Below are positions 2,242 through 32,739 of a stretch of DNA of 64,000 nt, piece after piece; the stretch's first letter is position 1; every line of letters begins with the position of its first letter. The stretch is from Actinomyces oris. GTDB lineage: Bacteria; Actinomycetota; Actinomycetes; Actinomycetales; Actinomycetaceae. A program made the position numbers and the translations under genes. Location of the stretch: assembly GCF_001929375.1 (NCBI RefSeq), contig NZ_MSGO01000014.1, forward strand, positions 1 through 64,000. The letters run 5' to 3'. The notes beneath the pieces were generated by a model. The model was given only the letters and a program-made list of their open reading frames with translations. It was not told where the DNA came from and did no database searches.

Positions 2242-2313
2242 TGGGGTATGGTGTAATTGGCAACACGACTGATTCTGGTTCAGTTATTCTAGGTTCGAGT
2301 CCTGGTACCCCAG
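2242..2313 (+). tRNA. tRNA-Gln (CUG anticodon)
   Basis: 72-nt cloverleaf: acceptor arms TGGGGTA (2242-2248) and TACCCCA (2306-2312) with G73, anticodon loop TTCTGGT giving CUG, and a GGTTCGAGTCC T arm. No CCA is encoded. It is first in the cluster. Confidence 0.95.
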
Positions 2314-2331
2314 CGGATCTGCTGATCTGTG

Positions 2332-2404
2332 GCCCCCATCGTTTAGTGGCCTAGGACACCGCCCTCTCACGGCGGCGGCGCCGGTTCGAATCCGGCTGGG
2401 GGTA
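2332..2404 (+). tRNA. tRNA-Glu (CUC anticodon), copy 1
   Basis: 73-nt cloverleaf: acceptor arms GCCCCCA and TGGGGGT with discriminator A, anticodon loop CTCTCAC region giving CUC, T arm GGTTCGAATCC. Identical in sequence to copies 2 and 4. Confidence 0.95.
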
Positions 2405-2445
2405 CGAGGGTCCGGTTGCCGGTTTCGGCACTCGGACTGTCATGA

Positions 2446-2518
2446 GCCCCCATCGTTTAGTGGCCTAGGACACCGCCCTCTCACGGCGGCGGCGCCGGTT
2501 CGAATCCGGCTGGGGGTA
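2446..2518 (+). tRNA. tRNA-Glu (CUC anticodon), copy 2
   Basis: Intact 73-nt copy identical to copy 1. The 41-bp spacer between them is unrelated to the spacer that follows, so the repeated unit is the tRNA alone. Confidence 0.95.
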
Positions 2519-2566
2519 CGGATCGAGCAGGCTGTTCAGTTCTGCCGGTTCGCAGCTCCATAGCAT

Positions 2567-2635
2567 GCCCCCATCGTTTAGTGGCCTAGGACACCGCCCT
2601 CTCACGGCGGCGGCGCCGGTTCGAATCCGGCTGGG
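2567..2635 (+). pseudogene. Truncated tRNA-Glu copy 3, fused to copy 4
   Basis: The copy is identical to the others up to TGGG of the 3' acceptor arm (2632-2635), where the sequence runs straight into the GCCCCCA of copy 4; G2635 is shared. The last three acceptor bases and the discriminator are replaced by CCC, so two of seven acceptor pairs become C-C mismatches. Without a proper 3' end this copy should not mature as a tRNA. It looks like a deletion of the original spacer at a one-base junction; a collapsed repeat in the assembly is the alternative. Confidence 0.75.
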
Positions 2636-2707
2636 CCCCCATCGTTTAGTGGCCTAGGACACCGCCCTCTCACGGCGGCGGCGCCGGTTCGAATCCGGCT
2701 GGGGGTA
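2635..2707 (+). tRNA. tRNA-Glu (CUC anticodon), copy 4
   Basis: Complete 73-nt copy: 5' arm GCCCCCA at 2635-2641, 3' arm TGGGGGT at 2700-2706, discriminator A at 2707. It starts inside the end of truncated copy 3 with no spacer, so its 5' end depends on RNase P cleavage directly after copy 3. Confidence 0.93.
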
Positions 2708-31001: not shown

Positions 31002-31007
31002 TAGCAT
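31002..31007 (+). promoter_or_regulatory. -10 box TAGCAT of the hflX leader
   Basis: TAGCAT lies 7 nt before the ATG of a seven-codon uORF, so the hflX transcript should begin with that start codon. Confidence 0.65.
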
Positions 31008-31014
31008 CGCCCCC

Positions 31015-31038
31015 ATGTGGATCCTTCGTATGCGCTGA
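31015..31038 (+). CDS. Leader peptide MWILRMR upstream of hflX
   Basis: A seven-codon frame (ATG TGG ATC CTT CGT ATG CGC, then TGA) with the start 7 nt after TAGCAT, so it would be translated leaderless. Codons 3 to 7 form the 5' arm of a 12-bp helix whose 3' arm contains the hflX ribosome binding site. The geometry is that of a ribosome-stalling leader peptide. Its reality rests on promoter spacing and RNA pairing, not on a known family. Confidence 0.65.
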   Translation: MWILRMR

Positions 31039-31116
31039 AACGGCGGCCGGCGCCGCCCCCCGCCAGAACCATCGCGCCCCATCGGAGGGGCGCAGGCATA
31101 CGACGAAGGACTTTTT
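31022..31116 (+). promoter_or_regulatory. Leader RNA switch (attenuator / SD-sequestering) of hflX
   Basis: Outer helix: 31022-31028 (TCCTTCG) pairs with 31104-31110 and 31029-31033 (TATGC) with 31096-31100, leaving a 3-nt bulge. Inside are two hairpins: GGCGGC/GCCGCC (31042-31057) and GCGCCCC/GGGGCGC (31074-31093). The 3' arm holds AAGGA, 6 nt before the hflX GTG, and is followed by CTTTTT (31111-31116), so the helix can act as a terminator or block translation. A ribosome on the uORF would cover the 5' arm and open it. Confidence 0.65.
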
Positions 31117-32739
31117 GTGACCCATCACCACTCCAACACCCCCTCCACCCCCGAGGACGCAGCAGACCTGCGCGACACCCGCGATGCCCATGAGGCCCGT
31201 GACGTCCGTGACGTCCATGACGTCGTCGCCCGGGTCCTGTCCCGGACCGGAACCGCCCTGGCCTCCACCGCCGCCCAGCACGAGCACGCCGGTGGCTACG
31301 AGGACGGCCTCGACGACGGCGCCCTGGAGCGGGAGGCCCGTGCCGCCCGCCGCCGTGTGGCCGGGCTGTCCACCGAGCTGGAGGACGTCAGCGAGGTCGA
31401 GTACCGCCAGGTCCGCCTGGAGAAGGTCGTCCTGGTCGGCCTGGAGCTGCCCCGGCCCCACGGCCCGGCCACCGGCGCACCGGGCGGCAGCGGCCAGGTG
31501 CGCGACACCCAGGACGCCGACACCTCCCTGCGCGAGCTGGCAGCCCTGGCCCAGACCGCCGGCAGCCAGGTCCTCGACGCCCTCATCCAGAAGCGCGACC
31601 ACCCCGATCCCGCCACCTACCTGGGCAGCGGCAAGGCGCGCGAGCTGGCTGACGTCGTGGCCGCGGCCGGCGCCGACACGGTGATCGTCGACGGCGAGCT
31701 CGCCCCCTCCCAGCGCCGCGCCCTGGAGGACGTCGTCGGCGTCAAGGTCGTTGACCGCACCGCCCTCATCCTGGACATCTTCGCCCAGCACGCCAAGTCC
31801 CGCGAGGGCAGGGCCCAGGTCGAGCTCGCCCAGCTCGAGTACCTCCTGCCACGCCTGCGCGGATGGGGCGAGTCCATGTCCCGACAGGCCGGAGGCCGCG
31901 TGGCCGCCGGTCAGGGCATCGGCTCACGCGGCCCCGGCGAGACCAAGATCGAGCTCGACCGGCGCCGCATCCGCCGGCGCATGGCCCGCCTGCGTCGCGA
32001 GATCCAGGCCATGGCGCCCTCGCGTCAGACCAAACGAGGCTCACGCCGACGCGGGGCCATCCCCTCGGTGGCGATCGCCGGTTACACCAACGCCGGCAAG
32101 TCCTCCCTCATGAACCGCCTCACCGAAGCCGGCATCATGGTCGAGGACGCCCTGTTCGCCACGCTCGACCCCACCGTCCGGCGGGCCGAGACCTCCGAAG
32201 GGCGCACCTACACCCTCACCGACACCGTCGGTTTCGTGCGCAACCTGCCCCACGAGCTCATCGAGGCCTTCCGCTCCACCCTGGAGGAGGTCGCCGGGGC
32301 CGACCTCGTGCTGCACGTCGTCGACGCCGCCCACCCCGACCCCCTCAGCCAGGTGGCGGCCGTGCGCACCGTCCTGTCCGAGATCCCCGGCGCCCTGGAC
32401 GTGCCCGAGCTCATCGTCCTGAACAAGATCGACCTCGCCGACGCCGTCACCCTGGCCGCGCTGCGCACCGGCCTGCCCGGGGCGGTCGCGGTCTCGGCCC
32501 GCACCGGCGAGGGGATCGAGGAGCTGCGCGCCCGCATCGAGCAGATGCTGCCCCACCCGCAGGTGAGCATCGACGTCGTGGTGCCCTACTCCCGTGGGGA
32601 CCTCGTCTCCCGGATCCACGCCGAGGGCGAGATCGACACGGTCGACTACGTCGAGACGGGCACTCACGTCGTCGCGCACGTCGGCGCCGCCCTGGCGGCG
32701 CAGATCGAGGGCGCCGCGGCGGGCGGCACCGTCGGCTGA
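31117..32739 (+). CDS. hflX: GTPase HflX
   Basis: 540-residue TRAFAC GTPase that binds the 50S subunit and splits stalled ribosomes after heat or antibiotic stress. The N-terminal HflX domain (about 90-290) includes YLGSGKARELADVV and SREGRAQVELAQLEYLLPRL; G domain motifs are GYTNAGKSS, DTVGF and NKID. GTG at 31117 follows AAGGA by 6 nt. The first 50 residues contain a 9-bp direct repeat giving RDVRDVHDV. Expression is probably set by the leader switch. dinG follows 8 bp after the stop. Confidence 0.95.
   Translation: MTHHHSNTPSTPEDAADLRDTRDAHEARDVRDVHDVVARVLSRTGTALASTAAQHEHAGGYEDGLDDGALEREARAARRRVAGLSTELEDVSEVEYRQVRLEKVVLVGLELPRPHGPATGAPGGSGQVRDTQDADTSLRELAALAQTAGSQVLDALIQKRDHPDPATYLGSGKARELADVVAAAGADTVIVDGELAPSQRRALEDVVGVKVVDRTALILDIFAQHAKSREGRAQVELAQLEYLLPRLRGWGESMSRQAGGRVAAGQGIGSRGPGETKIELDRRRIRRRMARLRREIQAMAPSRQTKRGSRRRGAIPSVAIAGYTNAGKSSLMNRLTEAGIMVEDALFATLDPTVRRAETSEGRTYTLTDTVGFVRNLPHELIEAFRSTLEEVAGADLVLHVVDAAHPDPLSQVAAVRTVLSEIPGALDVPELIVLNKIDLADAVTLAALRTGLPGAVAVSARTGEGIEELRARIEQMLPHPQVSIDVVVPYSRGDLVSRIHAEGEIDTVDYVETGTHVVAHVGAALAAQIEGAAAGGTVG

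What the first reader, a model, noticed from the sequence alone, without database searches (positions are those of the whole stretch)
31002..31120. hflX is preceded by a leaderless seven-codon uORF inside an RNA switch that traps its ribosome binding site
Seen: TAGCAT, 7 nt, then ATG-TGG-ATC-CTT-CGT-ATG-CGC-TGA; codons 3-7 pair (12 bp, one 3-nt bulge) with 31096-31110, which includes the hflX Shine-Dalgarno and is followed by CTTTTT. Two GC hairpins lie between. A ribosome stalled on MWILRMR would free the site; with normal or no translation the helix forms and hflX stays off. Established: HflX splits stalled ribosomes, and antibiotic-inducible attenuators of hflX exist in Listeria. Inference: this is an independent actinobacterial ribosome-stall sensor. 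The MFS exporter and RsmC-like rRNA methylase next door suit a translation-stress locus.
Basis: partly seen in the sequence, partly recalled or inferred. Interest (0 to 1): 0.85.

Follow-up and report, generated by a model that had tools for sequence, protein, structure and literature searches.

The report
Ribosome-sensing RNA switch before hflX
In most Actinomyces genomes looked at, the gene for a ribosome-rescue factor is preceded by a seven-codon decoy gene whose RNA can fold over the rescue gene's start; a ribosome stuck on the decoy would open it, which would make this a new, compact version of a known kind of antibiotic sensor, inferred from sequence and not yet tested.

Summary
The anatomy is real and where stated. 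The uORF MWILRMR-stop precedes hflX in 39 of 49 genomes of the genus (38 ATG, 1 CTG); all are seven codons, 6-8 nt after a TANNNT box, with W2, R5 and M6 unchanged. A covariance model built from 19 other leaders finds the window's at E=1e-9 and 19 of the 20 leaders it was not built from. I found none outside the genus. Covering the uORF lowers the predicted cost of opening the hflX start by 4.9 kcal/mol on average (29 of 39 by 2 or more; shuffled uORF 0.7). R5-M6-R7 is a +X+ drug-arrest motif (PMC8298421). Best reading: a translational attenuator of the only hflX, sprung by stalled ribosomes. Against: almost no covariation, SD occlusion clear mainly in the window's clade, five leaders with changed arms pair no better than controls, no expression data. 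Same kind as Listeria hflXr and E. coli toiL, but leaderless, seven codons, with the coding strand as lock. New variant of a known kind.

The parts
31002..31007 (+). TANNNT -10 box (TAGCAT)
   Evidence: spacing to the uORF start is 6-8 nt in 39 of 39 leaders
31015..31038 (+). leaderless uORF ATG TGG ATC CTT CGT ATG CGC TGA = MWILRMR*
   Evidence: 39 of 49 genus genomes, seven codons and TGA in each
31022..31033 (+). 5' arm of helix P1, inside codons 3-7 of the uORF
31027..31035 (+). codons 5-7, R5-M6-R7 (+X+ arrest motif); predicted stall with M6 in the P site
   Evidence: sequence; motif from PMC8298421 (passages)
31042..31064 (+). GC-rich hairpin after the uORF (predicted)
   Evidence: this stretch does not align well across the genus
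31074..31093 (+). second hairpin GCGCCCC/GGGGCGC; 19 other leaders carry a conserved GGTCCG...CGGACC hairpin in this place
31096..31110 (+). 3' arm of P1, overlaps the hflX Shine-Dalgarno
31106..31110 (+). hflX Shine-Dalgarno AAGGA
31117..32739 (+). hflX, GTG start; the only hflX found in the genome
   Evidence: TIGR03156 438.6 bits, cut-off 216.75; one strong match in G000

Best explanation
The stretch 31015-31116 is a translational attenuator of the single chromosomal hflX. Transcription starts at or next to the A of the uORF, so the uORF is translated as a leaderless mRNA (inferred from the -10 spacing). With no ribosome on the uORF, or after quick translation and release, its codons 3-7 pair with the bases around and just upstream of the hflX Shine-Dalgarno and hflX is poorly translated (predicted). 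A ribosome that lingers on the uORF covers the 5' arm and frees the hflX start. The most likely lingering event is a macrolide- or ketolide-bound ribosome that cannot join Met6 to Arg7 in the R-M-R motif; HflX then splits the stuck ribosomes (established for HflX in other bacteria). Shown here: conservation, complementarity, confinement to the genus, joint absence of uORF and arm. Inferred: transcript start, uORF translation, stalling, induction.
For: uORF: 39 of 49 genus genomes, 12 peptides of the form [ML]W[INSLF]xRM[RP]*; TGG, the CG of R5, ATG and TGA unchanged, while wobble bases 15 and 21 and codon 4 vary, a coding signature (the script asks for this pattern, but the looser search asked only for NTG-TGG and all 38 leaders it found fit). 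Spacing 6-8 nt in 39 of 39. Covariance model from 19 other leaders hits 31015-31119 end to end at E=1e-9 per genome, and 19 of 20 leaders outside its training set. RNAalifold finds P1 unprompted in those 19; 132 of 132 cells pair, against 0.8-71.5% when slid. Swapping arms between species worsens the duplex: the cognate mean is reached in 8 of 5000 permutations of 21 distinct uORFs (relatedness not removed). 33 of the 34 leaders with 5' CGTATGC pair 7-8 of 8 core positions. Predicted opening cost of hflX -25..+12 falls 4.9 kcal/mol on average when nt 1-32 are covered, 4.9-11.3 in the window clade L001-L012; shuffled uORF 0.7. The arm motif GCATAC/CATACG is in 29 of 39 leaders and in 0 of 10 genomes without the uORF. 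(K/R)MR is reported as an arrest motif in ErmDL variants with telithromycin (PMC8298421, passages). Listeria hflXr is induced by stalling on an RLR leader (PMC6310831, passages).
Against: No expression or ribosome data. P1 barely varies: 5 of 7 pairs never change and none changes on both sides in the 19. The five leaders with a changed 5' arm (L014, L017, L025-L027) have also left GCATACG (as have 8 of the other 34) but pair only 5-6 of 8 core positions, against a mean of 5.5 in shuffled and displaced controls; U-A to G-C at base 15 is seen only in one clade of four, in duplexes chosen by energy. Pairing of 6 or more is reached in 36 of 39 but also in 55% and 49% of controls. RNAalifold on all 39 does not recover P1. 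SD accessibility rises by 0.3 or more in only 11 of 39 and falls by 0.1 or more in 2; 10 of 39 gain under 2 kcal/mol. In PMC8298421 +X+ matters much more for telithromycin than for erythromycin, and RLR is dispensable for erythromycin arrest on ErmDL. Three of 39 encode R-M-P and one starts with CTG. Ten of 49 live without it.
Confidence: 0.62

Rival explanations
1. General ribosome-occupancy sensor: any ribosome that lingers on the uORF, also one held at the start codon or at termination, opens hflX; no drug-specific arrest peptide is needed (toiL-like multipurpose uORF).
For: Covering only nt 1-16 (initiating ribosome) relieves the hflX start as much as covering nt 1-32: mean opening cost 10.1 in both. 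E. coli toiL answers several drug classes, tetracycline by stalling at its start codon (PMC12121999, abstract and section headings only).
Against: Conservation of W2, R5, M6 and nearly R7 (36 of 39) is more than an occupancy sensor needs, although codons 5-7 are also held by pairing.
Confidence: 0.2
2. Transcription attenuator, intrinsic or Rho-dependent: without a ribosome on the uORF, transcription ends before or early in hflX.
For: Listeria hflXr works this way (PMC6310831, passages); in E. coli toiL the translational block leads to Rho-dependent termination (PMC12121999, abstract). A Rho step on top of the translational one cannot be excluded.
Against: Four or more T in the 9 nt before the start in 7 of 39 only; no terminator-like site in the window leader; the 3' arm overlaps or abuts the SD.
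Confidence: 0.1
3. The conserved block is only a promoter with a leaderless start, and the helix is a by-product.
For: In 9 of the 10 leader-lacking genomes the TANNNT box stands 10 nt before the hflX ATG itself (8 by script, G028 by eye); P1 is only moderately unusual in the window alone.
Against: A promoter does not explain a seven-codon ORF with stop in all 39 leaders nor a complementary arm kept while the distance from uORF start to hflX start runs from 96 to 174 nt and the middle hardly aligns.
Confidence: 0.06

Closest known systems
Listeria monocytogenes hflXr leader rli80 (PMC6310831; abstract and passages seen)
   Same: Upstream of an hflX gene; short ORF with an R-X-R motif; alternative RNA folds; stalled ribosome turns the gene on.
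   Different: 14 aa with RLR, transcription attenuation with an intrinsic terminator, controls a second, resistance copy; here 7 aa with RMR, leaderless, no conserved T-run, controls the only hflX.
uORFC-6-1 motif, mostly Bacillales (PMC8632094; passages seen)
   Same: Structured uORF candidate mainly upstream of hflX with an Arg-Leu-Arg motif.
   Different: Firmicutes; covarying structure wholly downstream of the uORF start codon; RLR, not RMR. I had no sequences of it to compare. No Rfam family matches the window leader above noise.
E. coli toiL-topAI (PMC12121999; abstract and section list seen)
   Same: uORF ribosome occupancy relieves occlusion of the downstream ribosome-binding site.
   Different: Other gene, other bacterium; Rho termination follows; whether it is leaderless I did not see.
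MsrDL (PMC10314930; passages seen)
   Same: Very short leader, MYLIFM, stalled by erythromycin with Met6 in the P site; MWxxRM has the same length and an aromatic residue 2.
   Different: MsrDL stalls on its stop codon and works on transcription; Y2 was the one residue whose alanine change mattered little, so the W2 likeness is weak.
WhiB7/WblC control of hflX in Streptomyces and Mycobacterium (PMC7157823, PMC10727445; passages seen)
   Same: Antibiotic-inducible hflX in Actinobacteria; the whiB7 gene itself has a uORF attenuator.
   Different: There hflX is induced by a transcription factor. Four WhiB proteins were found in this genome, none with an AT-hook by a simple motif check.

Membership tests
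ribosome-mediated (translational) attenuator | short conserved ORF upstream of the regulated gene | tested here: met
   39 of 49 genus genomes
ribosome-mediated (translational) attenuator | ORF sequence pairs with the downstream ribosome-binding region | tested here: met
   window: 12 bp including the SD; genus: 132 of 132 cells of P1 paired in 19 leaders, opening-cost effect of 2 kcal/mol or more in 29 of 39; SD itself less consistent, 11 of 39
ribosome-mediated (translational) attenuator | compensatory changes in the helix | tested here: inconclusive
   none in the 19; swap test 8 of 5000; one clade of four with U-A to G-C, but pairing there no better than controls
ribosome-mediated (translational) attenuator | ribosome stalls on the ORF in response to a signal and expression rises | not testable with these tools
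   needs toeprinting and reporters
macrolide +X+ leader peptide | Arg/Lys-X-Arg/Lys motif in the leader peptide | tested here: met
   R-M-R in 36 of 39, R-M-P in 3 of 39
hflXr-type transcription attenuator (Listeria) | intrinsic terminator before the gene | tested here: not met
   no terminator-like site in the window leader; run of 4 or more T in 7 of 39
curated RNA families (Rfam 15) | match above gathering score | tested here: not met
   only four tRNAs in the window; one chance match over the leader at E 0.52, 15.6 against 100 bits
WhiB7 regulon | WhiB7 protein present in the genome | tested here: inconclusive
   4 WhiB proteins, none with RGRP, GRPR or RGRK; the promoter box was not tested

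The most novel reading that the evidence does not exclude
The leaderless start is the sensor. Leaderless mRNAs are thought to be started by undissociated 70S ribosomes (PMC12186496, passage), and HflX is the enzyme that splits 70S ribosomes; a leaderless uORF that locks hflX when empty and opens it when a 70S sits on it would measure HflX's own substrate and close a feedback loop, with drugs as only one input. It fits that 9 of the 10 genomes without the uORF have the hflX ATG itself 10 nt after a TANNNT box, hence nearly leaderless, while an hflX-frame start 5-12 nt after such a box occurs in 8 of 75 loci outside the genus and, presumably by chance, in 7 of 39 leader-bearing genomes. Eight of the 9 come from only two groups on the tree; the ninth was not in the tree.
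Probability: 0.12. Interest if true: 0.85.

Novelty: new variant of a known kind. Interest (0 to 1): 0.62.

Why it matters
If true, it is another, apparently separately evolved way of tying hflX to stuck ribosomes (beside the Listeria and Bacillales leaders and the WhiB7 route), here on the only hflX of a genus that includes oral species. The whole sensor is about 100 nt, with a seven-codon leaderless ORF that is at once the candidate arrest peptide and the lock strand, so it is easy to test and could serve as a reporter of ribosome stalling. My searches that joined leaderless with uORF and stalling, or with 70S and HflX (listings only), showed no title about a leaderless attenuator of this kind.

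Tried and rejected
Transcription terminator reading: rejected as the main mechanism. Known RNA family: none. Wider occurrence: the loose pattern ATGTGGNNNNNNCGNATGCG hits 24 of the 164 family genomes outside the genus. For 18 of the 24 the hit lies on another contig than hflX or 22 kb or more away; for 6 (G066, G074, G075, G093, G124, G126) the hflX place was beyond the printed list and was not checked. The one covariance-model match outside the genus, G170 at E 0.007, lies inside a long reading frame that looks like ComEC (my reading, not searched), has no stop after codon 7, and hflX is on another contig. Family searches with over 40 genomes use stricter filters that can lose weak matches. 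Further copies in the genus: the strict pattern gives exactly one match in each of the 21 genomes that match; the looser one also hits G024, G028 and G034 away from hflX, taken for chance and not followed. The 10 leader-lacking genomes hold no short ORF of 4-30 codons 5-10 nt after a TANNNT box in the 400 nt before hflX. The first alignment with fixed coordinates mixed strands and was dropped. RNAalifold on all 39 leaders failed to give P1; the 19 with the conserved hairpin were then used, a selection of 19 of 39. Named records L031-L035 were left out of the 49-genome counts as likely repeats of G genomes. L129 was left out of the tree as too short. PMC11728304 mentions hflX and Actinomyces, but the hflX data seen are for Porphyromonas gingivalis. 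All ten paper searches showed no report of this leader in the listings of the held open-access library; subscription papers are mostly not in it.

Full report
What is there. The window carries a TANNNT box at 31002-31007, and seven bases later a seven-codon ORF, ATG TGG ATC CTT CGT ATG CGC TGA (31015-31038). Bases 31022-31033 inside it pair with 31096-31110, which holds the hflX Shine-Dalgarno AAGGA; hflX starts with GTG at 31117. The leader folds with this helix and two hairpins inside it. The downstream gene is hflX by a curated model (TIGR03156, 438.6 bits against a cut-off of 216.75). Each of the 49 genomes of the genus shows one strong hflX place; G009 and G028 show it in two pieces. The nearest named relative found is Actinomyces oris (97% identity).

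Is it more than chance? In the window alone the helix is only moderately unusual. Conservation decides. In 49 genomes of the genus, 39 have the uORF before hflX: 38 with ATG and one with CTG (G031, seen by eye). The script that fixed the set asks for the full pattern, but the looser search before it asked only for NTG-TGG and all 38 leaders it found fit the full pattern, and the 10 other genomes have no short leaderless ORF there at all, so no diverged leader was dropped. Peptides: MWILRMR 18, MWIFRMR 8, MWITRMP 3, MWNLRMR 2 and eight single variants; the wobble bases of R5 and R7 and codon 4 vary. The -10 box lies 6-8 nt before the start in 39 of 39, so the uORF would be leaderless (the transcript start is inferred).

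The helix. hflX starts 96-174 nt after the uORF start and the middle hardly aligns. In 36 of 39 leaders at least 6 of the 8 core positions pair, but shuffled or displaced controls reach that in 55% and 49%, so this count alone is weak. Stronger: 33 of the 34 leaders with an unchanged 5' arm pair 7-8 of 8; cognate arms pair better than swapped arms (8 of 5000 permutations as good, 21 distinct uORFs); RNAalifold finds the 7-bp helix and a 10-bp hairpin unprompted in the 19 of 39 leaders chosen for that hairpin; and a covariance model from those 19, which do not include the window, finds the window leader end to end at E=1e-9 per genome and 19 of the 20 leaders outside its training set, the miss being G003 (the model scores sequence as well as pairs). 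True covariation is scarce: in the 19, no pair changes on both sides. The five leaders with a changed 5' arm have lost the usual 3' arm and pair only 5-6 of 8, no better than controls: they look more like decay than like compensation.

Effect on hflX. If nt 1-32 are covered, as by a ribosome with codon 6 in the P site, the predicted cost of opening hflX -25..+12 falls from 15.0 to 10.1 kcal/mol on average, by 2 or more in 29 of 39; with the uORF letters shuffled (5 per leader) the mean fall is 0.7 and 18% reach 2. In the window clade (L001-L012) the fall is 4.9 to 11.3. Accessibility of the five SD bases rises from 0.29 to 0.45 on average, by 0.3 or more in 11 of 39, 9 of them in this clade; with the uORF shuffled 3% rise that much. 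Covering only nt 1-16 works as well. The four leaders with a presumably weaker peptide or start (three R-M-P, one CTG) have falls of 1.3, 0.0, -1.3 and 0.0; this is post hoc, from two lineages, and six leaders with R-M-R and ATG also fall by under 2.

History. On a tree of 55 HflX proteins (48 of the 49 genus genomes, one left out as too short, and 7 outgroups) the leader needs three changes, which I read as one gain after the most distant species G046 split off (support 95/79) and two losses. None of the 10 leader-lacking genomes has the arm motif GCATAC/CATACG before hflX, against 29 of 39 leaders. In 9 of the 10 the hflX ATG stands exactly 10 nt after a TANNNT box, that is, nearly leaderless (8 by script, the ninth, G028, read). 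The leader-bearing hflX genes start with GTG 29, TTG 9, ATG 1, starts being chosen by my script's SD rule. I found no leader outside the genus: none by covariance model in 164 family genomes save one rejected match, none in 75 other hflX loci, nearly all actinobacterial by title; six loose pattern hits were not placed.

How it most likely works. R5-M6-R7 is a +X+ motif, where macrolide- or ketolide-bound ribosomes fail to join the P-site residue to the incoming Arg; PMC8298421 (passages) notes that a (K/R)MR motif created in ErmDL arrests in its telithromycin screen, though it also says that +X+ matters less with erythromycin. A ribosome stuck there covers the 5' arm and frees hflX. HflX splits stuck ribosomes; in Listeria an hflX copy is turned on by stalling on an RLR leader (PMC6310831, passages), and in Streptomyces and Mycobacterium hflX is drug-induced through WhiB7 (PMC7157823, PMC10727445, passages). 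No AT-hook WhiB was seen among the four WhiB proteins of this genome, a hint, no more, that the RNA does the job here. Shown: anatomy, conservation, distribution. Predicted: folding energies. Inferred: transcript start, translation, stalling, induction.

Rivals and verdict. An occupancy sensor without a specific arrest peptide fits the folding numbers equally and has a precedent in toiL (PMC12121999, abstract and headings). A Rho or terminator step is less likely or secondary. The bold reading, a leaderless sensor of the 70S ribosomes that HflX splits, rests on the statement that 70S monosomes are thought to start leaderless transcripts (PMC12186496, passage) and on the pattern in leader-lacking genomes; it is unproven. 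I rate the finding a real regulatory leader of most of the genus and a new variant of a known kind.

Noticed in passing
the 19 leaders of alignment A3 (L015, L018, L020, L022-L024, L028-L030, L111, L112, L114, L115, L117, L120, L123-L125, L127), just upstream of the 3' arm: A conserved hairpin close to GGTCCGTYGAGCCTCGCTCCGGACC, more alike than a spacer needs (99.5% of cells paired); its GAGC repeats the GAGC after the uORF stop, so a further alternative pairing is possible. The window clade has another hairpin there.
   Followed up: partly
L019, L021, L113, L116, L118, L119, L121, L126, L129: Genomes without the leader have the hflX ATG exactly 10 nt after a TANNNT box.
   Followed up: yes
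L117 (G031): The uORF starts with CTG instead of ATG and the predicted switch effect is nil.
   Followed up: partly
L129 (G028): hflX is split in two frames with a stop; this genome is 82% complete, so it may be an assembly error.
   Followed up: no
window 2242-2707: Four tRNA genes in a row, three with identical scores.
   Followed up: no
L077: A record titled Vibrio cholerae holds an hflX 66% identical to this one, as actinobacterial ones are; perhaps contamination of that assembly.
   Followed up: no
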